Assembly: GCA_016928395.1 (NCBI GenBank)
Contig: JAFGKV010000291.1
Span: forward strand, 1-10,578
Reading direction: 5' to 3'
Source: Candidatus Fermentibacterota bacterium
Lineage (GTDB): Bacteria > JAFGKV01
Length of the DNA: 10,578 nucleotides
Part shown: positions 1 to 10,578 of the stretch, one piece after another
Position numbering within the stretch: the stretch's first letter is position 1
Layout of the letters: every line of letters starts with the position of its first letter
Notes under the pieces: generated by a model
Database searches by the model: none
What the model was told of the DNA's origin: nothing
Seen by the model: only the letters and a program-made list of their open reading frames with translations
Made by a program: the position numbers and the translations under genes

Positions 1-11
1 CAGCGGCGTGC

Positions 12-168
12 GGGAGGGCAGAGACGCCCTCCCCTACGGAGGCCTGCGAGGAACCGTTGCCTTGTAGGGGCGGAGCTCTGACTCCGCTCGTGTCGGGCCT
101 GAAGGCCCTCCTACTGTTCGGCTGCGCGGAACCGTTGCCGTCGTAGGGGCGACCGTCTCTGGTCGCCC
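12..168. repeat. cluster of modular intergenic hairpin repeats
   Basis: Four perfect inverted repeats lie in tandem: GGGAGGGC (12-19) with GCCCTCCC (26-33); GCGGAG (70-75) with CTCCGC (82-87); GGGCC (95-99) with GGCCC (104-108); and GGGCGACC (147-154) with GGTCGCCC (161-168). Loops are 4 to 6 bases. Outer edges carry GTAGGGG or CCCCTAC-like ends. Related units recur at 3646-3669, 4404-4460 and 7174-7195, always outside genes, which suggests a dispersed non-coding repeat family of this genome. Whether these act as transcript terminators, RNA stabilisers or remnants of a small transposable element cannot be told from this window. Confidence 0.75.
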
Positions 169-279
169 GCAGGAGGGGGAGCTCGGAGTCGGTATCGGTA
201 TCGCTCTCGAGAGGCGTACCTCCTAGTACGAGTACGAGCGCGAAGCTGGGGTGTACTCTCAAACGAACCGCAAGGAGAG

Positions 280-295
280 TGTGACCCAGGTCACA
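280..295. promoter_or_regulatory. CRP/FNR-family-like operator
   Basis: The sequence TGTGACCCAGGTCACA is a perfect TGTGA-N6-TCACA palindrome, and it extends to 18 bases as GTGTGACC-CA-GGTCACAC (279-296). This is the classical Crp recognition consensus known from enterobacteria. A third half-site, TGTGA, follows at 303-307. The centre (287.5) lies about 62-65 bases before the start point expected from the promoter at 317-345, which is the class I activator geometry. The motif and spacing are seen directly. That this host has a CRP-like protein reading it is inferred. Confidence 0.55.
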
Positions 296-316
296 CATAT
301 CATGTGATCCGGGTCC

Positions 317-345
317 TTGCCGTCTCACGGGATCTTCACTATGAT
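317..345 (+). promoter_or_regulatory. sigma70-like promoter of the subtilase gene
   Basis: A -35-like TTGCCG (317-322) and a -10-like TATGAT (340-345) are separated by exactly 17 bases. Transcription would start near 350-352 and give a leader of about 190 bases before the ATG at 540. The CRP-like palindrome just upstream sits at class I distance, so the weak -35 element could be helped by an activator. The match is by eye only. FCB-group bacteria often use different -10 and -35 consensus elements, which lowers confidence. Confidence 0.4.
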
Positions 346-539
346 TCATCGCGACCTCGGCCGCTCGGTCTCGGGAGGCGTATGTGCCCCGGGTGCGTAC
401 TCCGTCTGCCGTCGATTCCCAGGAATGACTTGAGCGAGTGCAGGGCATGTATCTACATTGGGCCGCTGTGACCTGGTTTTCGGATTCCCCACCCACGGGG
501 CCTGCGAGCCTGGTCGGTCTTTCACACCAAGGAGGGTGT

Positions 540-3479
540 ATGCGTCGCGTCTTTGTTGTCACAGCCCTCGCGTTGATTGTTTCGGCCAACATGGTCGCCG
601 CAGCAACCATGTCGGTCGAGGCGGCTCGCAAGGTGGATCCCAAGCTACTCATGCTTCACAAGGATCCCGCGACCTTCGGCAAGGGTTTCACCAATGCGGC
701 TTTAGGCGCTGCCGTCGATCCCAAGAACGCAGTGGTCCCCGTGATCGTCAAGACCACCGCTCCGCGCAGCAGGCTTGAGGCCGCAGGTGCCACCGTCGGC
801 TCCGTCCTCGGTGACATCGTGACGGCCCGTATCCCGCTGGAGAAGCTGGAGGCCATAGCGCTCTTGGAGGATGTCGAAGCCATTGAGGCATCGTATCGCC
901 TCTACAACTGCATGGATGTCAGCGTGCCTGAATGCGGGGGAACGGCGGTACGGCAGCAACTGGGGTTCACCGGCAACGGCGTCATCGTCGGCTTGCTGGA
1001 TACGGGCATCGACCCCTATCATCCCGACTTCCTCGATGCCAACAACAAGACCCGCGTGCAGTTCATCTGGGATCAGTGGTCATCTGGCACCCCACCCTCT
1101 GGCTATACGTACGGCCGCGAATGGACGAAGGCACAAATCGACGCCGGTAATTGCACCATGAACGATCCGGGAGCACACGGTTCGCACTGCTCGGGTACGG
1201 CCGCCGGTGACGGGAGTGCGTCCAACGCGGGGTATATCGGCATGGCCACCAAAGCCGATATCATGATGGTATCGAACCTTTCGGACGACATCTTCAGTTA
1301 CGGGTATGCACCTCCGTGGTCACCCACCCCTAGCACCATGGGCTCGCTGGACGGTCTTGCCTACCTCTACCAGAAGAAGTCGCAACTCAACAAACCCATG
1401 GTCATCAGTTGGAGCCAGGGCGTCACCATGGGACCCCACGATGGCTCGACGCTGTTCGAACAGGGTGTCGATAACTTCATCACGACCCGTAACATCCCGG
1501 TCTGCATCGCGGCGGGCAACGATCAAGAACAAGACTGGCATGCGCGGGCCCAGGTCACGACGGGCTCGGCGCGAACCGTGTCGTTCACGACCGGCACGCC
1601 CGGGCAGGATCAGCTCTCGGGCGATGTGAAGTTCGAGATCTGGTACAAGCTGGGCGACAAGCTGAACCTGGAGATCATCGACCCCTTCGGCGGCGTCTCC
1701 AGTGTGTTCGGCCCTGACGAGACAGGCTGGCCCGGCTGGATCATGAGCACCGGCGACACGGTCTGGGTGTACTCCACGAGCAATCATCCGGTAAGCCACA
1801 AGGGCTATTTTCTGGTTGATCTGTGGGACTGGAACGACGGCGTGACACAAGGCACCTGGCGCATCCGGCTTTCCGCCGATAACTCCCTGCCCCAAGGCGG
1901 CCAGTTCGACGCCTGGTTTGAACGCAATCAGTACGCCGTTCACTGGCTGGAGAATGTGTCCCTGGAGTCCATCGTTGGTATGCCCGGTTCCGCCAAGCAG
2001 GCCATCACCGTCGGCTCCTACAATACCAAGCTTCAATGGTATGACATCGACGGCACCGGGTGGACCATCAGCGAAACCATGGGCGAAATCTCGGGCTTCA
2101 GCAGCAACGGCCCGACTGCCGATGGCCGACAGAAGCCGAACCTTTCGGCGCCCGGCCAGATCATCGCCTCGGTAATGTCCAGCGGTTCAGCGCCGGATTA
2201 CACGCAGAACCAGCGCTACTACGTTGCGCCGGACGGCGTGCATGTCTACATGCAGGGGACGAGCATGGCCACGCCCCATGTCGCGGGATGCATCGCCACG
2301 ATGCTGGAGAAGAAACCGACGGCGTCATACACCGAGATCCGTGACATTCTCCAGAACACCGCCCGCCATGACCAGTACACCGGGCAGGGCTGGCAGAAAG
2401 ATTTCGGCTGGGGCAAACTCGATGCCTACGCGGCCGTGCAGGCAACCGGCGGCGGCGGCCCCGGCCAGACCGTGGAGCTCATCTATGACGATGGGACACC
2501 GACCAGCGGGTACTACTGGCCCGGCGCGGGGCAAGGTTCCGGTGTTCAAATGACACCGCCACAGTACCCGGCGACCATCAAAAAGCTGAAGTACTACATC
2601 AACTCGGTCAGCGGCGGCGCGTCGTTCAGTGCCCGCACTTATGACACCGTCACCGGAAACCAGATTACCAATGCCCTGACAGTCACGGCACCGGGTACCG
2701 GGTGGCTCGAGGTCGACGTGTCAGGCCAGAACAAGCAGGTTACCGCCGAGTTCATCGTCTGCATGTTCTACGACGGTGTGAATACGCCGACCTTCGGCTA
2801 TGATCCCGCGGACAATGGCCGCGCGTGGGACTTCGACGGCACAAACTGGGACACGTGGAACGAGACCTACTTTATGCGGACCATCGTGCAGGTCGGCAGC
2901 GCCGTCGAGGACGAAATCGAGCTGGCGGGCCTCTCGGCGAATGCCGTCGAGGGCGCCGTGATGCTGGCCTGGTCGCCCTCGGTCGCCTGGGAGATTTCCG
3001 GGTACAATGTGTACCGCAACAAATCGGCCCAGACCGAGTCATGGAACCAGGTCAACCGTGCCATGCTGACCGAGACCTCGTTCAAGGATGAGACCGTGGA
3101 ACCGGGCCAGACCTACTTCTACTGGCTGGAAGCGGTCACGCCTTCGGGCGTCGGCACCCTGTTCGGGCCGGTGGACGTGACCACCCTGGGCGGTCCGACC
3201 ACCCTGTGGCTCATGCAGCCGAGGCCTACGCCCACCAACGGTCCGTCGTCACTGCGGTTCTTCCTGCCGACTGCCGGCACGGTGTCGATGGGTCTCTATG
3301 ACGTCGCCGGGCGTCGCGTGGCCTCCATGATGGAGCCCGAGGAGATGGGATCAGGCTGGCGGTCGCTCTCGTGGGCGCCGACAACATCGCTGCCTTCAGG
3401 CCGCTACGTCTGCAGGTTGGCGCTGGATGCCGGAGACCTGCAGCTCAGTGCCACCAAGCCCTTCATCCTGATTCGTTAG
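540..3479 (+). CDS. secreted subtilisin-like serine protease (peptidase S8) with FnIII-like and sorting-type C-terminal domains
   Basis: A 979-residue exported endopeptidase. The start at 540 is chosen because AAGGAGGG (529-536) sits just before it and a type I signal peptide follows (MRRVFVVTALALIVSANMVAAA); the frame is open further upstream, to 438. Residues about 59-122 resemble an I9-type propeptide that folds and inhibits the enzyme until cleavage. The catalytic triad is visible: Asp154 in LLDTGID, His213 in AHGSHCSGT and Ser575 in GTSMATPHVAG. Oxyanion Asn327 is in AAGND. About 125 residues of beta-sandwich-like sequence are inserted between Asn327 and Ser575. After the protease domain (to about 636) come a beta-rich domain (640-785), a fibronectin type III-like domain (about 793-884, with GYNVYRN) and an Ig-like tail (about 890-979, with LYDVAGRRVASM). 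The tail is of the FlgD-like or type IX secretion sorting kind. The likely role is extracellular protein degradation, on the surface or released. The family call is firm, the substrate unknown. Confidence 0.93.
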   Translation: MRRVFVVTALALIVSANMVAAATMSVEAARKVDPKLLMLHKDPATFGKGFTNAALGAAVDPKNAVVPVIVKTTAPRSRLEAAGATVGSVLGDIVTARIPLEKLEAIALLEDVEAIEASYRLYNCMDVSVPECGGTAVRQQLGFTGNGVIVGLLDTGIDPYHPDFLDANNKTRVQFIWDQWSSGTPPSGYTYGREWTKAQIDAGNCTMNDPGAHGSHCSGTAAGDGSASNAGYIGMATKADIMMVSNLSDDIFSYGYAPPWSPTPSTMGSLDGLAYLYQKKSQLNKPMVISWSQGVTMGPHDGSTLFEQGVDNFITTRNIPVCIAAGNDQEQDWHARAQVTTGSARTVSFTTGTPGQDQLSGDVKFEIWYKLGDKLNLEIIDPFGGVSSVFGPDETGWPGWIMSTGDTVWVYSTSNHPVSHKGYFLVDLWDWNDGVTQGTWRIRLSADNSLPQGGQFDAWFERNQYAVHWLENVSLESIVGMPGSAKQAITVGSYNTKLQWYDIDGTGWTISETMGEISGFSSNGPTADGRQKPNLSAPGQIIASVMSSGSAPDYTQNQRYYVAPDGVHVYMQGTSMATPHVAGCIATMLEKKPTASYTEIRDILQNTARHDQYTGQGWQKDFGWGKLDAYAAVQATGGGGPGQTVELIYDDGTPTSGYYWPGAGQGSGVQMTPPQYPATIKKLKYYINSVSGGASFSARTYDTVTGNQITNALTVTAPGTGWLEVDVSGQNKQVTAEFIVCMFYDGVNTPTFGYDPADNGRAWDFDGTNWDTWNETYFMRTIVQVGSAVEDEIELAGLSANAVEGAVMLAWSPSVAWEISGYNVYRNKSAQTESWNQVNRAMLTETSFKDETVEPGQTYFYWLEAVTPSGVGTLFGPVDVTTLGGPTTLWLMQPRPTPTNGPSSLRFFLPTAGTVSMGLYDVAGRRVASMMEPEEMGSGWRSLSWAPTTSLPSGRYVCRLALDAGDLQLSATKPFILIR

Positions 3480-3496
3480 CAGTTTTCGGATCGCGT

Positions 3497-3528
3497 ACGA
3501 GGGGATGGCCTCCCAGCCATCCCCTCGT
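3497..3528 (+). terminator. hairpin terminator after the subtilase
   Basis: A perfect 13-base-pair stem, with arms 3497-3509 and 3516-3528 and loop CTCCCA, begins 18 bases after the protease stop codon. The core is GGGGATGGC/GCCATCCCC. No run of T follows, so it is either a T-less intrinsic terminator or a 3'-end-protecting structure. Its arms differ from the dispersed GTAGGGG-type repeats, which argues that it belongs to this gene. Confidence 0.65.
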
Positions 3529-3645
3529 CGTGTGTGCCTCATCCCTTCGTACTCGGGTTCACGGGTACGGTCTGTGCGCGCGACCGCTGTACGAGCGGCT
3601 TCCAGTTGTACGAGCGGCTTCAGCCGCGACCCTCCCCCGCATCCC

Positions 3646-3669
3646 TGTCGGGCCTGAAGGCCCTCCTAC
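3646..3669. repeat. exact 24-base copy of the hairpin repeat at 91-114
   Basis: Bases 3646-3669 are identical to 91-114, beginning TGTCGGGCCTGAAGG and ending CCCTCCTAC. The core is the hairpin GGGCC-TGAA-GGCCC. An exact 24-base match between two spacers 3.5 kb apart is far beyond chance and identifies a dispersed intergenic repeat of this genome. Confidence 0.85.
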
Positions 3670-3775
3670 AGTGCCGGCGGCTTCCCGCGTCGAAGCATCT
3701 TGAGGGCAGCCTCTTGACGCACGCACGTCTTCATTGGTAGTTGCAGACTACCGTTCTGTCATCTCGATACCCAAC

Positions 3776-3790
3776 AGAGGAGTGACAATG
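3776..3790 (+). promoter_or_regulatory. ribosome binding site deciding the start of the beta-barrel gene
   Basis: AGAGGAG (3776-3782) stands 5 bases before the ATG at 3788. The open frame begins earlier, at 3734, but only the start at 3788 has this site and opens directly into a signal peptide. Confidence 0.7.
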
Positions 3791-4303
3791 CGCCCTGCGA
3801 TCGTGTCTGTGGCCCTCATGCTCATGCTCGCCCTACCCGCTCTGGCGGCGGAGAAGGGCCACATCTCCGTGACTGCCACCGCCAGCATCTACGATCCCCC
3901 GGGGGATGCGGGGGCATCCCCCATGCTGGGGCTTCGCGCCAACTATTGGCTGAGTTCAAAGGTCGCCCTTGCGGGGAATGTGTCATGGACGAAGTATGAC
4001 GACGCCGGCACCAGTATCACGTATGTCCCCGTCTCCATCGACGGCATTCTCCACCCCCTGGGTTCCGCCAAGTTCGATCCGTATGTCGGCGCAGGTCTGG
4101 GCCTGAACTACCGTTCCTGGGCAGATGATTCGAGGACCGATGCCGGCGTCGAATTCCTGGCAGGCCTCGCCTACCGGCCGGGGGGATCCATGAGCTTCGA
4201 TTTCGAGGTCAAGCGCCGGATCGAGGATCTCTCCGACACGAAGGACTCCGGTTCGTGGTCATTCGGCGGCGGTATTACCGGCACGTGGTCGGGGGATCTC
4301 TAG
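3788..4303 (+). CDS. small outer-membrane beta-barrel protein
   Basis: A 171-residue exported protein. Residues 1-20 form a signal peptide (MRPAIVSVALMLMLALPALA), with probable cleavage after ALA. The mature part has alternating polar and hydrophobic stretches with glycine-aromatic turns (YVGAGLGLNYRSW, FLAGLAYRPGG), typical of 8-stranded OmpA/OmpW-like barrels of the Omp_b-brl type. Its length of about 150 mature residues fits that class. The last strand ends GTWSGDL, without the usual C-terminal Phe, so barrel assembly by the BAM complex is inferred rather than shown. No specific function can be read. The genes on either side are transcribed in the same direction but separated by spacers of more than 200 bases, so it is probably its own transcription unit. 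Confidence 0.7.
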   Translation: MRPAIVSVALMLMLALPALAAEKGHISVTATASIYDPPGDAGASPMLGLRANYWLSSKVALAGNVSWTKYDDAGTSITYVPVSIDGILHPLGSAKFDPYVGAGLGLNYRSWADDSRTDAGVEFLAGLAYRPGGSMSFDFEVKRRIEDLSDTKDSGSWSFGGGITGTWSGDL

Positions 4304-4431
4304 CACACGCATATCGCCCCGCGTCAAGTAGTGCCCCGCATTAGGGCTAACCTTCGCGGCTGACACCGCTTCTGCACGCGGGGTAATGCTGTGCACAGGC
4401 CATGTAGGAGCGCCGTAAGGCGCGAAGACTG

Positions 4432-4460
4432 CCCGGCCGCGAAGGGTCTTCGCGGCCGGG
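4432..4460. repeat. strong 13-bp perfect hairpin in the spacer
   Basis: Arms CCCGGCCGCGAAG (4432-4444) and CTTCGCGGCCGGG (4448-4460) pair perfectly around a 3-base loop, GGT. Just before it, GCGCC-GTAA-GGCGC (4410-4423) forms a second hairpin after GTAGGAG. The two-stem layout resembles the repeats at 12-168. It stands 129 bases after the beta-barrel stop and 67 before the ankyrin gene, so it could terminate the former transcript, but no T tract follows it. Confidence 0.65.
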
Positions 4461-4527
4461 GTCGGGTGTCCTGTTCGCGTTTGATACCGCTCCAACACGC
4501 AAGGCGCAGGATCGGAGAGAATGAATC

Positions 4528-5196
4528 ATGTCTCGTCTTGGCATGATCTTCGGCATGGCCATCGCCGCCCCCGTCGTGCTTGGGTGTCGTGGTGGCATGC
4601 CGGTCGACCTGTGTGAAGCCGCGAAGCGCGGCGATCTGCAGGAAGTACGCCAGCTCGTCGAAAAGGGAGCCCAGGTCAATTCCGGGTGTTCCCGCGAGTG
4701 GACGGCGCTGCACTGGGCAACGGATAAGGGACATGTGGATGTCGCACGCTTCCTCCTCGAACAGGGCGCCGATTCCCGGGCTCTCACGGTCGGCGGCACC
4801 ACATCCCTGCATCGCGCGGCCCACAAAAATCGCTTAGCCATCGCCCGGCTTCTGCTGGAGCATGGGGCGGATGTCAACGCAGCCGATGACAATGGGTGGC
4901 GCCCGCTGCACTGGGCCGTCGGGCGCGGGTTTTGTGACATCGCAGCCCTGCTTCTCGATCATGGGGCGGACGTCAATGCTCAGAACGGCAAGGGGTTCTC
5001 ACCCCTCCACCGGGCAGTGATGCGCGGCAGACAGGAGGCAACGCGGTTCCTCATCCAGCACGGAGCAGACCTCAACGTCCGAACGGCCGACGGCAAGACG
5101 GCCCAAGACCTGGCACGAGAACAGGGCCAGACCAAACTCATCGCCATCCTCATCGGCGCTTCCGACACGACAAAGGAGGGACAAGGGGGCTGGTGA
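4528..5196 (+). CDS. ankyrin-repeat lipoprotein
   Basis: A 222-residue protein. The start at 4528 follows GGAGA (4514-4518) and opens into a lipoprotein signal ending in VVLG-Cys20. Lipidation at Cys20 and anchoring in the envelope are expected, with Arg at +2 giving no inner-membrane retention signal. Residues about 25-210 are a run of ankyrin repeats: a capping repeat (24-56), four canonical ones (about 57-90, 91-122, 123-155, 156-188) with TALHWA, TSLHRAA, RPLHWAV and SPLHRAV motifs and repeated HGADVNA hairpins, and a C-terminal cap (TAQDLAREQG). Ankyrin arrays bind proteins and have no catalytic role. A periplasmic or outer-membrane partner is likely but not identifiable. The C-terminal tail, TTKEGQGGW, is disordered-looking. 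Family call firm; lipobox somewhat non-canonical (Leu at -2). Confidence 0.88.
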   Translation: MSRLGMIFGMAIAAPVVLGCRGGMPVDLCEAAKRGDLQEVRQLVEKGAQVNSGCSREWTALHWATDKGHVDVARFLLEQGADSRALTVGGTTSLHRAAHKNRLAIARLLLEHGADVNAADDNGWRPLHWAVGRGFCDIAALLLDHGADVNAQNGKGFSPLHRAVMRGRQEATRFLIQHGADLNVRTADGKTAQDLAREQGQTKLIAILIGASDTTKEGQGGW

Positions 5197-5329
5197 TAGC
5201 TGTCTCCCCTTGCAGCAGCGGGCCCTACTGCTGAGTGCTGCCCCGGCATCCCAACAAGGGGATACCGCTGGATCTAGAGAGAATCACAACCTCGGCGGAC
5301 TCGCGAGTCGAGGCTCTTCGTTGGGGAGG
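5197..5329. other. convergent spacer between ankyrin and nuclease-like genes
   Basis: The two genes end towards each other with 133 bases between them. A weak stem, CAGCAG (5213-5218) with CTGCTG (5228-5233), and a perfect 12-base palindrome, GACTCGCGAGTC (5298-5309), lie here. Neither is a strong bidirectional terminator, and no gene is seen. Confidence 0.45.
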
Positions 5330-6127
5330 CTACTTCACGAGCTCTTGCAGCTCCGACTGGTTCTCCCGCGAGAGTTGCCGGGAGAGGAATCTGTCGACGC
5401 TGGCCGGATCCGGATTTTGCCGCACAGGTTCCACGACCTCCTCGTAGCTCTCCGGATCCTCTGCGTCACGGAACACGAGAAGCCCCACGCCGAAACGACC
5501 GCAGAGCAGCATGAGTCGATCGAACGCCTCGTCGCCGTCCGGAAGGCCATCGGGGCATTCATAGACCAGGTAGCTCTTGTGGGCAAACATCGAATGTGAA
5601 GCCGTCTCGAACACGGCCTCTATCTCGTAGGTACCGGCAGGCTTGACCTCGAAGGTAATGACCTCGAGGTAGCGACCGGGCGTGAACGTATAGGTTCGCA
5701 CCGCCGCCAGCGTGATATCCGGCCTGGTCCACTTTCCGCCCGTGCTCCTCTTCCCCTGGTGCGCGGTGATCTGCAGGACGAAGTGCTTGATCGAGTTCTC
5801 CCTGACGAAGTTGCTGCCGAGATAGGCGCTGATGGGAGCATAGAGCTCCTTCTCTCCCGAAGGCTTCCTGCCCTTGCCTTCGGCAGCAGCCACGACCAGC
5901 CGAACAGACCCCCCTTTTCCTCGGGCCTTGGCAAGTTTGCCCTCCTGAATGAGCGCGTTCCGGATCTCCCAGTACACATCTTCCGTGAGGTCGAAGTCAT
6001 GCTTGTCTTTCAAGGCCTTCCTGAGTTCCCCCATGAGCTTCTTGTTCCCTTTTGCCTCGCCCGATGTCGGCATCAGCGCGAGAAGCACCTTGGAGAACTT
6101 GCGGAACTCGGCGTCGCTGATCGTCAT
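5330..6127 (-). CDS. winged-helix-like plus PD-(D/E)XK nuclease-like protein, orphan
   Basis: A 265-residue protein. The start at 6127 (MTISDAEF) is preferred over an upstream ATG at 6160 because AAGGAGAG lies a few bases before it. Residues about 1-80 are helical and end in a basic beta-hairpin-like stretch (LAKARGKGGSVRLVV), the shape of a winged-helix DNA-binding domain. A short linker rich in Lys, Gly and Glu follows. Residues about 95-220 carry a PD-(D/E)XK signature: Asp137 in RPDITL, then after a beta-strand gap Glu160 and Lys162 in FEVKP, then a helix-strand pair (SMFAHKSYLVYE) typical of restriction-endonuclease-like folds. No methyltransferase or specificity subunit is next to it. 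It could be an orphan restriction or defence nuclease, or a DNA-binding regulator that kept the fold. No named family is claimed. Fold assignment is moderately sure, function unknown. Confidence 0.6.
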   Translation of the reverse strand: MTISDAEFRKFSKVLLALMPTSGEAKGNKKLMGELRKALKDKHDFDLTEDVYWEIRNALIQEGKLAKARGKGGSVRLVVAAAEGKGRKPSGEKELYAPISAYLGSNFVRENSIKHFVLQITAHQGKRSTGGKWTRPDITLAAVRTYTFTPGRYLEVITFEVKPAGTYEIEAVFETASHSMFAHKSYLVYECPDGLPDGDEAFDRLMLLCGRFGVGLLVFRDAEDPESYEEVVEPVRQNPDPASVDRFLSRQLSRENQSELQELVK

Positions 6128-6190
6128 GGGGCTCTCTCCTTGCTGAAGACATGCGGCCAACCTGGCTCTGTGGAGCGAGGATCTGTGACA

Positions 6191-6218
6191 GTTAGAGACG
6201 GGGGAGCATCTCTGTCAA
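6191..6218 (-). promoter_or_regulatory. candidate promoter of the nuclease-like gene
   Basis: On the minus strand TTGACA (complement of 6213-6218) and TCTAAC (complement of 6191-6196) are 16 bases apart, upstream of the gene starting at 6127. The expected leader is about 57 bases. The -35 element is perfect and the -10 matches 4 of 6. An inverted repeat, TGACAG (6186-6191) and CTGTCA (6212-6217), brackets the promoter core and could be an operator. Confidence 0.4.
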
Positions 6219-6264
6219 GGTCGACCCTGGTAGCGTGAATGTGATGGCCGGATCGAGTTGGCCC

Positions 6265-6293
6265 TTGACTGGGCGCGTGCCACGTCCAATACT
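6265..6293 (+). promoter_or_regulatory. promoter of the ars operon
   Basis: TTGACT (6265-6270) and AATACT (6288-6293) are separated by 17 bases and lie 43 bases before the arsR start codon. The predicted start of transcription, near 6300, places the ArsR-type palindrome at 6306-6321 immediately downstream, where a bound repressor would block RNA polymerase. Confidence 0.55.
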
Positions 6294-6305
6294 ACACGCG
6301 TACAC

Positions 6306-6321
6306 TTCGTTATATGGCGAA
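6306..6321. promoter_or_regulatory. ArsR operator candidate
   Basis: TTCGTTATATGGCGAA is an imperfect palindrome, 6 of 8 base pairs symmetric: TTCG...CGAA around a central TAT/ATA. AT-rich dyads with TTCG/CGAA-type arms are typical of ArsR/SmtB repressor sites. It lies between the promoter and the arsR start codon, the expected place for autorepression that is lifted by arsenite. Confidence 0.55.
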
Positions 6322-6335
6322 ACATAGGAGACAAG

Positions 6336-6695
6336 ATGAGGACACTGACCAGTGTGACCAAGGCCCTGGCCGATGAGAATCGCCTTCGCATTCTCAATGC
6401 CCTGCGGCACGGCGAGCTGTGCGTCTGCCAGCTCATCGAGCTGCTGGGTTTGGCGCCGTCCACCGTGTCCAAACACCTGTCGATCCTGCGCCAGGCGGGG
6501 CTCGTGGAGTCGCGCAAAGAGGGGCGCTGGATGCACTACCGCCTGCCGGACAATGCCGCGTTGGTGGTTCGCGGCGCCTTGGCATGGGTTCTGAGTGCGC
6601 TTGCAGGAACTGACACTGCACAGCGCGACGAGGTTCAGCTCAGCGAGATTCTCAAGGAGGGCAAGGAGGCGCTATGCCAGCGAATGAGCCGTTGA
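6336..6695 (+). CDS. arsR: ArsR-family arsenite-responsive repressor
   Basis: A 119-residue winged-helix repressor of the ArsR/SmtB family. The start at 6336 follows AGGAGA; the frame is open further upstream, to 6258, but that part holds the promoter and operator. The DNA-reading helix is in LGLAPSTVSKHLSILRQAG (residues about 38-55) and the wing in RKEGRWMHYRL (60-70). The metalloid-binding motif ELCVCQL has Cys29 and Cys31. The Cys at +3 of the E. coli-type CxCxxC triad is absent (Ile34), so a third ligand may come from Cys114 near the C-terminus, which is an inference. Binding of As(III) or Sb(III) releases DNA and derepresses the operon. The gene overlaps arsC by 22 bases, so the two are co-transcribed and probably translationally coupled. 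Confidence 0.92.
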   Translation: MRTLTSVTKALADENRLRILNALRHGELCVCQLIELLGLAPSTVSKHLSILRQAGLVESRKEGRWMHYRLPDNAALVVRGALAWVLSALAGTDTAQRDEVQLSEILKEGKEALCQRMSR

Positions 6696-7144
6696 AGATA
6701 CTGTTCCTCTGTACCGGCAACTCATGCCGGAGCCAGATGGCCGAGGGGTGGACCCGGCATCTGCACGCGGGACGTATCGAAGCCTATTCCGCGGGCATCG
6801 AGGTCAAACCGGTGGACCCCCGCGCCGTGGCCGTCATGGCCGAGGCGGGAGTGGACATCTCCCACCACCGATCGAAGCATGTGTACGACGTGGTAAGCAT
6901 CGGGTTCGACGTGGTCATCACCGTGTGCAGCCACGCCCGGGAAACCTGTCCGCTTTTCCCCGGGAAGGCAATCATCCTTCATCACGAATTTGACGATCCG
7001 CCCTACCTGGCCCGTCACGCGGCTTCCGAGGATGAAGAACTCTCCCACTACCGACGAGTCCGCGACGAAATCCGCGCCTTCGTCGAGGACCTGCCCGAGA
7101 TGTTTCAGGAGCCATCCGGTAATGCCGCGCATCACGCGGCGTAG
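6674..7144 (+). CDS. arsC: thioredoxin-coupled arsenate reductase (low-molecular-weight phosphatase fold)
   Basis: A 156-residue cytoplasmic enzyme that reduces arsenate to arsenite, the form exported by ACR3. The phosphatase-type loop is C-X5-R at Cys13-Arg19 (LCTGNSCRSQMAEGW). Cys85 and Cys92 (TVCSHARETCPLF) have the same 7-residue spacing as the redox pair of Staphylococcus pI258-type ArsC. Together with Cys13 they make the triple-Cys relay that thioredoxin recycles. The acidic catalytic loop is FDDPP (Asp107-Asp108). Length fits the family at 130-150 residues, plus a short C-terminal tail (GNAAHHAA). The start at 6674 has AAGGAGG (6663-6669) and overlaps the arsR end. It is not the glutaredoxin-dependent E. 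coli-type enzyme. Confidence 0.93.
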   Translation: MPANEPLKILFLCTGNSCRSQMAEGWTRHLHAGRIEAYSAGIEVKPVDPRAVAVMAEAGVDISHHRSKHVYDVVSIGFDVVITVCSHARETCPLFPGKAIILHHEFDDPPYLARHAASEDEELSHYRRVRDEIRAFVEDLPEMFQEPSGNAAHHAA

Positions 7145-7173
7145 GGGCCGGACCCCGTGCCCGCCCGGGGGAC

Positions 7174-7195
7174 GGGAGGGCAGAGTCGCCCTCCC
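7174..7195. repeat. dispersed hairpin repeat after arsC
   Basis: GGGAGGGC (7174-7181) and GCCCTCCC (7188-7195) pair around a 6-base loop, AGAGTC. Flanks and loop match the unit at 12-33 almost base for base (loop AGAGAC there), and both are followed by CCTACGG. It begins 30 bases after the arsC stop and may weaken transcription into the ACR3 gene. Confidence 0.75.
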
Positions 7196-7343
7196 CTACG
7201 GCATGCGTGAGAGCGCCCCTTCAGAGGCTTTGCTGAACCCTGTACCCCCGCACCAGGCTTTCTTCTGGATTCCGGATACTGCCCAGCGTCTCCTCACTCC
7301 TCACTCCCAACTCCTCACTTCAACGAGAGCGAGGCACCCATCC

Positions 7344-7383
7344 ATTCTTCCATTGTTCTATTGTTCCATTCTTCCATTCTTCC
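7344..7383 (+). repeat. five tandem 8-base units (ATTCTTCC/ATTGTTCY)
   Basis: Units ATTCTTCC, ATTGTTCT, ATTGTTCC, ATTCTTCC and ATTCTTCC follow without gaps. The strand is purely pyrimidine plus A and G at fixed places. It is a short variable-number-type repeat 43 bases before the ACR3 start codon. The unit length of 8 means copy changes would alter leader length but not any reading frame. Confidence 0.75.
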
Positions 7384-7425
7384 ATATCTGAACCCTGAGG
7401 CCCAGCCTACCGCCAGGAGAAGCCC

Positions 7426-8619
7426 ATGATCACTGAAGCCTGTGTGACCAAGCAGCCCAAAGGCCTGAGCGTCTTTGAGAAGTACCTGACCGCGTGGGTT
7501 CTCTTGTGCATCGCGGCCGGTATCCTTCTGGGGAAGATCGCTCCCGGCGTCGCCCGATCGCTTGACGACATGGCGATCTTCGTGAATGGCGCCCCCGTGG
7601 TGTCCATCCCCATTGCCATCTGCCTGTTCTTCATGATGTATCCCATTATGGTCAAGATAGACTTCGCGTCAGTCATCAAGGCCGGCAGGAGCGGGAAACC
7701 GGTCGGGTTGACCCTGTTCGTGAACTGGGCCATCAAACCGTTCACCATGTATGCCATTGCCCTGCTGTTCCTGGGCGTGCTGTTCCGGGGCTTCATCGGC
7801 GCCGAGGCGACGGACCTGGTGAAGATGCCGTTCGGCCTGGATCTGGCCGTGGGCACAACGCACGGGGCCGGCACGGTGGTGCTCCACGAGGGCGTCAAGA
7901 TGCTGCAGGTTCCGCTGTGGCGCAGCTACCTGGCCGGCTGCATTTTGCTCGGCATCGCGCCCTGCACGGCCATGGTGCTGGTCTGGGGCTACCTGGCGCG
8001 GGGCAATGACGGGTTGACGTTGGTCATGGTGGCCATCAACTCACTGACCATGCTCGTGCTGTACGGCGTGCTGGGCGGTTTCCTGTTGGGCGTCGGCCGG
8101 CTGCCCGTCCCCTGGCAAGCATTGGTGCTCTCCATCGGCATCTATGTCGCACTGCCGCTCGTCGCAGGCTACGTGTCGAGGAAGTGGCTCATCGCCGCCA
8201 AAGGCGAAGCGTGGTTCACCGAGAAGTTCCTCCATGTTCTTACCCCCATCACGATTATCGCCCTACTGACGACGCTGGTGCTGCTCTTCTCATTCAAGGG
8301 CGAGGTGATTCTCTCCAATCCGCTGACGATCCTGTGGATTGCCATCCCGCTGTTCATACAGACCAACCTGATTTTCTGGTTGGCCTACCTCCTGGCCCGG
8401 CGGCTGAAGCTGCGCTACGAGGATGCCGCCCCTTCCGCCATGATCGGGGCATCAAACCACTTCGAGGTCGCCATCGCCACCGCCACCATGCTGTTTGGTC
8501 TCTCTTCAGGCGCGGCTTTGGCCACGGTGGTCGGCGTGCTCATCGAGGTGCCGGTCATGCTCATGCTGGTCAAGATCTGCCTGCGGACGACCCATTGGTT
8601 CGCGCCGAAAGGCGTCTGA
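7426..8619 (+). CDS. acr3: ACR3-family arsenite efflux permease
   Basis: A 397-residue inner-membrane carrier that exports As(III), probably by proton antiport. AGGAGA ends 5 bases before the ATG. About ten hydrophobic segments span the protein. Family landmarks are [15 protein letters not shown] with the conserved Cys180, [32 protein letters not shown] and [15 protein letters not shown] with a conserved Glu. Residues about 126-165 ([18 protein letters not shown] and a following HEGVKMLQ stretch) form a longer loop before the Cys180 helix than I expect in shorter ACR3 proteins. This may mark a subfamily and is from memory. The gene is separated from arsC by 281 bases but is same-stranded and completes an arsR-arsC-acr3 resistance set. 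Often annotated arsB, but it is not the unrelated E. coli-type ArsB. Confidence 0.93.
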
Positions 8620-8630
8620 TCTCCGGAAAG

Positions 8631-8712
8631 CCCATTCACGTACCCGTTCACGTGCACGCTTCCTGGTGCCGATGCTCCGCGTCGGAACCCCCGTGCCGCC
8701 GCTCCGCGGTCG
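8631..8712. repeat. tandem and dyad repeats after acr3
   Basis: A 12-base imperfect tandem (CCCATTCACGTA at 8631-8642, CCCGTTCACGTG at 8643-8654) is followed by two 20-base related units (8666-8685 and 8693-8712) that share GTGCC, CTCCGC and a dyad of the CCGA...TCGG kind. These spacer units belong in style to the GC-rich left part and are the last recognisable left-genome sequence before the joint. Confidence 0.55.
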
Positions 8713-8727
8713 AGAGGGGCGCGGAGG

Positions 8728-8745
8728 ATGATGATTTAACAGGGT
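8728..8745. other. joint between two unlike sequences
   Basis: To the left is GC-rich repeat-type spacer; to the right is protein-coding sequence of lower GC with AT-ending codons. A short GATGATGAT run (8727-8735) sits at the boundary. The open frame to the right can be followed leftwards through the joint only as out-of-frame sequence of the acr3 gene, so its true beginning is missing. No integrase, transposase, terminal inverted repeat or tRNA is seen here. A misassembly is the simplest reading; a recent recombination is the alternative. Confidence 0.7.
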
Positions 8746-9377
8746 CATTTGCAAGCCCTCTTATCAGTTTTCCAACCTCTGGTTTTGTTCAGGCAAGCCT
8801 TGTTTTCACGACTCCGGATAATACAGAAAGATGCCAGATCGGCGTGGGTGTGAGAACCCCTAACGGCATTGTTTATTTCGATGATGCAGTGCTTTATGAA
8901 TCTAACTGTGAGGGCTGTGAAGGAGAGGTGTATTGGGCTGGTTATCTGGGGGATTATCCTGATGGCAGTTGTGACCTTCTCGGACCTGAGATCTACGAGG
9001 CTGAGTCATGGGATACTGTATGTCTTGTTGCCAGAGGCGATAATGAGTATTGCGATGGCCAGACAGTCAACTTTGCGCTGTCAGATTCATCTACTCTTCC
9101 TGAAGGCTTTGTGTGGAACCCATTATCAGAGACAAGTGATGAGATGGAGCAGTTAGATGATAACCTCTGGGTTGCGCATGTGCCTTGGATTTTTGCATAT
9201 TGTTTGGGCTCGTGCAATCCGCAGACTATGGTGCTGCAGTGCCCTCCAAGCTTTGGAGTGGACTGCTGCGACCCGATCCATGAATGCATAGAGTTTTGCA
9301 ATGTGTGCGATGACCCGCATGGCGATTACTACAGCTTGTGCCTTGATTATTGTGATGAGACTGCTAAAAAGAGCTGA
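8736..9377 (+). CDS. C-terminal part of a Cys-rich, probably secreted protein (5' end missing)
   Basis: About 213 residues are readable from the joint to the TGA at 9375-9377. No in-frame start codon or ribosome binding site exists in the right-hand sequence, so the N-terminus is cut off. Residues GIVYFDDAVLYES close a beta-sandwich of the carbohydrate-binding-module type (the YFDD-type final strand). After that come 15 cysteines in about 160 residues, including CEGCEGE, DCCDPIHECIEFCNVCDDP and CLDYCDE, a density expected only for disulfide-bonded extracellular domains or metal sites. Acidic and aromatic residues are frequent. The next gene begins 5 bases after the stop, so the two look co-transcribed. 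I do not recognise a family. It is not a continuation of the acr3 operon. Confidence 0.7.
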   Translation, partial: LTGSFASPLISFPTSGFVQASLVFTTPDNTERCQIGVGVRTPNGIVYFDDAVLYESNCEGCEGEVYWAGYLGDYPDGSCDLLGPEIYEAESWDTVCLVARGDNEYCDGQTVNFALSDSSTLPEGFVWNPLSETSDEMEQLDDNLWVAHVPWIFAYCLGSCNPQTMVLQCPPSFGVDCCDPIHECIEFCNVCDDPHGDYYSLCLDYCDETAKKS

Positions 9378-9382
9378 TTGAT

Positions 9383-10578
9383 ATGGACAAGAAACTGAAA
9401 ACCGGGATTTTGGCTTTGCTTGCTGTGCTTTGTTTGATGATAGTAGCTTCTTTTGCTTATGCACAGGGTGCTGTTGCTTATTTCGAGGCCACACTAGGCA
9501 TGGGCGGCTCTTTAGGAGAGTCAGGTCCTCTCGGCTCTTGCGGTCTGGAGGGAGAGGTTTGTGATGAGACGCTTGCATGCTGTGAAGGCCTTTTCTGCAG
9601 TCCAGGCATTGTCTACAGCGCTTTGTATTATGACGATGTCGTGAAGCACTGCTGCCCTTCAGGCACTTACTGGGACAATGATGAGAGCGCCTGCGTGCCC
9701 TCTCCTGCCTTTTCATGCTCAGACGGCTGGACTGAGAATTTCAACTCAGGGATTGATGTGTTTAACGACTGGTTCAGGTATTATGATTCTGTTGACAACT
9801 ATCAGACTCACACTGTTTACGGGATGCTTTACATTGACGGGTTCAAAGAAGGCGACTTTTCTGACTACAACTGGGGAATGGGCGGAGACTATCTCAAGAG
9901 CCGATACTATCTCGGAGACGGCAGTGATGATGAGGTCTTGGAGTTTGTGTGGAAGATGAGGCTCAACCCAATAGGCTTTGAAGACTTTGGCAAAAGCAAC
10001 GCGATAATGTACCTCCAGAACGAGGAGGAGGATTACATCATCAACATCTGGAGGACAGGGCATTTCCCAGGTGATGGACAGCCCCATAACATCGTGATCT
10101 TAGAGGGCTACAATACAGGAGTGGGCTGGGATGAGCTTTGCGTTGACGGGAACTGCTGTCCCTCATGCATTTTCAGGGACTTGACAATGTACGACACTTA
10201 CAAGCTTGTGATTGACGTTGCAGAGCAGAAATACCAGGTCTATCTCAATGATGTGCTTTTCGACAACTTCAACAACCCAGGCCATCCGACAGTTCATGAC
10301 TGGCGCTACTACCAAGGCCCTGGAAGATTGGAGAAGCTCTCTGTTGTCTTCGGAGGAAACACGCTCTTCGAACAGACCCAGAACGTGAGCTTCGATGACT
10401 TCAGTGCCAGCGGAGGGACTTGCGCTGACCTCGACCTCGGACATCGAATCTGCGGAGACGTCAGCGCATCAGGCACAGACCTGCCGTCAGCCTGCGACAC
10501 AGACCTGACAGACGTTGCTGTTTTCCCGAACATGAACTATTACAACTTCTACTGCGTCTATGAAGGAAAGAATTACTC
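9383..10578 (+). CDS. secreted Cys-rich protein with knottin-like cluster and lectin-like domain (3' end outside the window)
   Basis: The frame is open for 398 codons and leaves the window without a stop. Residues 1-27 are a signal peptide (positive MDKKLK, hydrophobic core, AYA-Q cleavage site). Residues 53-72 have Cys spacing C-x6-C-x5-CC-x4-C (Cys53, 60, 66, 67, 72), followed by Cys90, 91, 104 and 112, resembling an inhibitor cystine knot. Residues about 115-345 are a beta-rich domain with the marks of concanavalin-like or 3-keto-disaccharide-hydrolase-like sandwiches (ENFNSGIDVFNDWF, YKLVIDVAEQKYQVYLND, SFDDFSASGG), so sugar binding or hydrolysis is possible but unproven. Further Cys (347, 357, 371, 391) begin a third region. 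The mature fragment has 17 Cys. Arg codons are mostly AGG, CGA or AGA, unlike the left-hand genes. No clear Shine-Dalgarno site precedes the ATG. Confidence 0.75.
   Translation, partial: MDKKLKTGILALLAVLCLMIVASFAYAQGAVAYFEATLGMGGSLGESGPLGSCGLEGEVCDETLACCEGLFCSPGIVYSALYYDDVVKHCCPSGTYWDNDESACVPSPAFSCSDGWTENFNSGIDVFNDWFRYYDSVDNYQTHTVYGMLYIDGFKEGDFSDYNWGMGGDYLKSRYYLGDGSDDEVLEFVWKMRLNPIGFEDFGKSNAIMYLQNEEEDYIINIWRTGHFPGDGQPHNIVILEGYNTGVGWDELCVDGNCCPSCIFRDLTMYDTYKLVIDVAEQKYQVYLNDVLFDNFNNPGHPTVHDWRYYQGPGRLEKLSVVFGGNTLFEQTQNVSFDDFSASGGTCADLDLGHRICGDVSASGTDLPSACDTDLTDVAVFPNMNYYNFYCVYEGKNY

What the first reader, a model, noticed from the sequence alone, without database searches (positions are those of the whole stretch)
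8700..8760. Abrupt compositional and coding joint: probable assembly chimera or recombination point
GC-rich spacer repeats of the left genome end at about 8727 and lower-GC coding sequence with different codon use begins by about 8736. The right-hand reading frame has no start codon, meaning its gene is cut. Left and right therefore come from different contexts, and anything inferred about gene linkage across this point is unsafe. The GATGATGAT run at 8727-8735 is a short sequence that could have allowed a false join.
Basis: partly seen in the sequence, partly recalled or inferred. Interest (0 to 1): 0.7.

Follow-up and report, generated by a model that had tools for sequence, protein, structure and literature searches.

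The report
False join at a contig end
The last 1.85 kb of this contig almost certainly comes from a different microbe than the first 8.7 kb and was most likely glued on by mistake during assembly, so it says nothing about the bacterium's biology.

Summary
The joint is real as a sequence feature. The window is a whole contig (C19, 10,578 b) of a 4.79-Mb, 343-contig draft genome. Bases 1-8726 match that genome in GC (62%), tetranucleotides and codon use. The last ~1.85 kb has 49% GC and lies further from the genome than any of 1,688 equal-sized windows from 770 kb of it. A maximum-likelihood change point falls at 8724. A repeat shared with contig C111 aligns up to 8726 and then stops. The right-hand frame has no start codon until GTG 8844; its first part resembles the end of a CBM_4_9-like domain, so the gene appears beheaded at the joint. 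The next gene runs off the contig end. The right-hand proteins occur nowhere else in the bin or in 385 other bacterial genomes. Faint matches to two small archaeal genomes and AGR-rich arginine codons hint at an archaeal source, but this is not significant. Best explanation: a cross-organism assembly chimera at a contig end. A natural junction cannot be excluded without reads. Interest is low; its use is as a warning about linkage.

The parts
1..8726 (.). Bacterial part of the contig: S8 peptidase, beta-barrel protein, ankyrin protein, unknown ORF, ArsR-ArsC-ACR3 arsenic genes, GC-rich spacer repeats
   Evidence: GC 0.62; whole-left tetranucleotide distance 0.10 and windows 0.19-0.30, inside the genome's range; gene families
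7426..8619 (+). ACR3 arsenite efflux transporter, last complete gene left of the joint
   Evidence: TIGR00832 E 1.2e-113, over cut-off
8658..8726 (+). Spacer repeat copy, cut short at the joint
   Evidence: 87% identical to C111:1495-1561, alignment ends at 8726; weaker copy in C15; the C111 and C15 copies go on to GGAGCGCC / GGAGCACC, this one does not
8724..8735 (.). The joint (most likely between 8726 and 8727; GATGATGAT 8727-8735 cannot be assigned to a side)
   Evidence: Change point 8724; repeat end 8726
8736..9377 (+). 3' part of a foreign gene, 213 codons plus stop; its first ~55 residues resemble the C-terminal part of a CBM_4_9-like domain; Cys-rich remainder
   Evidence: No start before 8844; alignment to L172, whose domain is PF02018 CBM_4_9; codon score -0.27 versus 0.16 to 0.33 for left genes
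9383..10578 (+). Second foreign gene, hydrophobic N-terminus, Cys-rich, runs off the contig end
   Evidence: Open 3' end; no Pfam or NCBIfam family; codon score -0.15; not found elsewhere in the bin

Best explanation
The contig is a chimera. A fragment of about 1.85 kb from another organism of the same sample (lower GC, perhaps a small archaeon) was joined to the end of a bacterial contig in or next to a spacer repeat at 8726/8727. The composite was then binned by its long bacterial part. Shown: the compositional and codon break, the truncated repeat, no start codon, location at the contig end, and absence of anything similar elsewhere in the bin. Inferred: that the join was made by the assembler (or by a chimeric library molecule) and not in a cell, and that the source is archaeal.
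For: Outlier against 1,688 windows of the bin in both GC and tetranucleotides; change point at 8724; repeat homology stops at 8726; codon-use switch, Arg AGR:CGN 8:3 on the right versus 14:96 on the left; right ORF begins without a start and, by its faint similarity to L172, inside a CBM_4_9-like domain; right block ends only at the contig end; right proteins absent from the rest of the bin and from 385 other bacterial genomes, including the genus and family relatives held. In a published mock-community test, cross-species chimeric sequence always lay at contig ends (PMC8172020).
Against: No reads, so no coverage step and no lack of spanning pairs could be shown. The true parent of the right side was not found. 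No other fetched contig of the bin shows such a foreign tail, so the assembly is not generally riddled with them. The known shared sequence at the joint is too short for a typical k-mer join.
Confidence: 0.82

Rival explanations
1. Natural junction: foreign DNA (from an archaeon, a virus or another bacterium) was inserted by recombination next to the ars genes in the real bacterial chromosome, breaking a spacer repeat; the far end of the insert lies beyond the contig.
For: Breaks at spacer repeats also occur naturally; a foreign island would show the same composition break. ACR3 itself has its best relatives (78-83%) in other families and was not found in the one genus and one family relative searched, so the region may be mobile.
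Against: The right gene starts without its 5' part and the right block has no integrase, transposase, tRNA or other mobility sign; no relatives in phages, plasmids or viral contigs. Codon use shows no amelioration towards the host.
Confidence: 0.14
2. One genome throughout: the right side is simply an atypical native surface-protein region of the same bacterium.
For: Cys-rich surface proteins can have unusual composition.
Against: None of 1,688 windows of the bin comes near it in GC or tetranucleotide distance; the Arg codon preference is reversed; no homologue elsewhere in the bin or in its genus and family relatives.
Confidence: 0.04

Closest known systems
Inter-species chimeric contig in a metagenome assembly
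   Same: Two unrelated compositions, a cut gene at the joint, foreign tail reaching a contig end, joint at a repeat
   Different: Coverage evidence could not be examined; the shared sequence at the joint is short
Genomic island or integrated element boundary
   Same: Sharp composition change beside host genes
   Different: No integrase, transposase, tRNA or other mobility sign in the 1.85 kb seen; first gene beheaded

Membership tests
Assembly chimera | Two parts of different genomic composition | tested here: met
Assembly chimera | Coding or repeat unit cut at the joint | tested here: met
   Repeat stops at 8726; no start codon before 8844; domain cut inferred from a weak match to L172
Assembly chimera | Each part matches a different source genome | tested here: inconclusive
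   Left matches the bin; right has no close relative in the genomes searched
Assembly chimera | Coverage step or lack of spanning read pairs | not testable with these tools
   No reads held
Integrated mobile element boundary | Integrase or transposase, or tRNA attachment site, near the boundary | tested here: not met
   for the 1.85 kb available only
Integrated mobile element boundary | Second boundary or attachment repeat at the far end | not testable with these tools
   Contig ends at 10578

The most novel reading that the evidence does not exclude
A real transfer of surface-protein genes from a small (DPANN-like) archaeon into a bacterial chromosome beside an arsenic-resistance locus.
Probability: 0.05. 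Interest if true: 0.4.

Novelty: not a real feature. Interest (0 to 1): 0.07.

Why it matters
It is a data-quality point: genes right of 8726 should not be credited to this bacterium, and the apparent 397-aa ORF 8184-9377 is a gene-caller trap across the joint. If the junction were natural it would be a recent cross-lineage, perhaps cross-domain, gene transfer.

Tried and rejected
Pattern-based relative searches with the right-hand proteins in genome contigs (second protein) and viral contigs (both) found no relatives. Translated searches of phages (both proteins) and plasmids (second protein) found nothing, and solved structures gave nothing. Single-sequence structure predictions of both right proteins were of very low confidence (mean pLDDT 35 and 38) and were not used. 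The archaeal ribosomal protein S27e family is absent from the bin, so there is no sign of wider archaeal contamination, though this is one marker only. The archaeal origin of the right side was tested against 392 relatives of an Aenigmatarchaeota genome, its phylum and one other phylum: the three hits at E<=0.01 (best 4.7e-4) are within what chance could give over that many genomes, and one of them lies over stop codons. The origin is therefore kept as a hint only. GATGATGAT as the cause of the join: rejected as unsupported.

Full report
What the window is. The window is the complete contig C19 (10,578 b) of a draft genome of 4.79 Mb in 343 contigs, 94% complete with 3% contamination. There is no sequence to the right of 10578.

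GC is 0.60-0.65 left of the joint, apart from a dip to 0.56 at 7251-7750, and 0.47-0.53 right of it. A Markov model trained on the genome against one trained on the distal right side puts the best change point at 8724, with 8720-8730 nearly equal. The left genes end with a complete ACR3 transporter, stop at 8619. A noncoding stretch follows, holding a spacer repeat that is 87% identical to a copy in contig C111. The alignment runs to 8726 and stops. In C111, and in a more distant copy in C15, the repeat goes on GGAGCGCC or GGAGCACC; here GGAG is followed by GATGATGATTTAACA. The copy is therefore cut, most likely between 8726 and 8727.

The right side is foreign to the bin. I fetched 82 contigs (76 usable, 770 kb) and compared 1,688 windows of 1,843 b with the right side. 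The bin's windows have GC 0.625 +/- 0.019 (minimum 0.56) and tetranucleotide distance 0.23 +/- 0.03 (maximum 0.37). The right side has 0.49 and 0.56. All left windows fall within the bin's range. Codon use agrees: left genes score 0.16 to 0.33 (leave-one-out), the right ORFs -0.27 and -0.15. Arginine is AGR 8 to CGN 3 on the right and 14 to 96 on the left. Neither right-hand protein has a homologue elsewhere in the bin, in the one genus and one family relative held, or in the other genomes of a 386-genome bacterial sample.

The right gene is cut. Its frame has no ATG, GTG or TTG from the joint to 8844. The only relative found, in L172 (a genome that I infer to be of the Aenigmatarchaeota, since it turned up among the nearest relatives of a named Aenigmatarchaeota genome), aligns residues 14-84 of the right fragment to the end of a tandem domain. 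Pfam calls that domain CBM_4_9, PF02018. About 100 residues of the domain would lie upstream of the joint and are missing. This match is weak (E 4.7e-4 for one genome, about 0.2 over the 392 searched), so the domain argument is suggestive and not proof. The same frame is open to the left, through ACR3 out of frame, to a GTG at 8184, so an automatic caller may report a false 397-aa ORF 8184-9377.

Source of the right side. A Cys-rich motif of the second protein (GEVCDETLACCEGLFC...HCCPSGTYWDNDESACV) resembles one in another small genome from the archaeal sample (L173, E 5.9e-4). Archaea gave three hits at E<=0.01 in 392 genomes and bacteria none besides the window itself in 386. Since about four such hits are expected by chance in either set, this is not significant; one of the three crosses stop codons and is certainly spurious. 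An archaeal source is my reading of the protein style, the AGR codons and these faint matches. It is a hint.

Mechanism. The most economical account is an assembly or library chimera that appended a fragment of another community member to a bacterial contig end at a repeat. Short-read graph assemblers lose context at shared k-mers and can join unrelated sequence (PMC7299287). In one mock-community test the chimeric sequence always lay at contig ends (PMC8172020). The 9-base GATGATGAT is shorter than usual k-mers and cannot by itself explain such a join; it can also be read in frame as Asp codons of the right-hand gene. A natural insertion is the main rival. It has no mobility gene, tRNA or other mark in its favour in the 1.85 kb available, but reads would be needed to exclude it.

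It is not a biological novelty.

Noticed in passing
6336-8619: ArsR, thioredoxin-type ArsC-like and ACR3 genes in a row. ACR3 has 78-83% identical relatives in four genomes of other families but none in the one genus and one family relative searched, which suggests horizontal spread of the ars genes.
   Followed up: partly
5333-6160 (minus strand): 276-aa ORF with bacterial-style codon use and no Pfam, NCBIfam or significant PHROG match.
   Followed up: no
1-170, 3590-3690, 4400-4450, 7150-7200, 8658-8726: Intergenic GC-rich repeats of several kinds (for example GAGGGCAGAG.CGCCCTCCCCTACGG and GATGCTCCGCGTCGGAAC); the second kind has copies in C111 and C15 and can fold into a strong hairpin.
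   Followed up: partly
7341-7385: Tandem repeat of TCCATTCT, 5.6 copies, between arsC and ACR3.
   Followed up: no
9383-10578: Foreign ORF with hydrophobic N-terminus, Cys-rich segment and a lectin-like stretch (Gal-bind_lectin E 0.17, not significant); no known family.
   Followed up: partly
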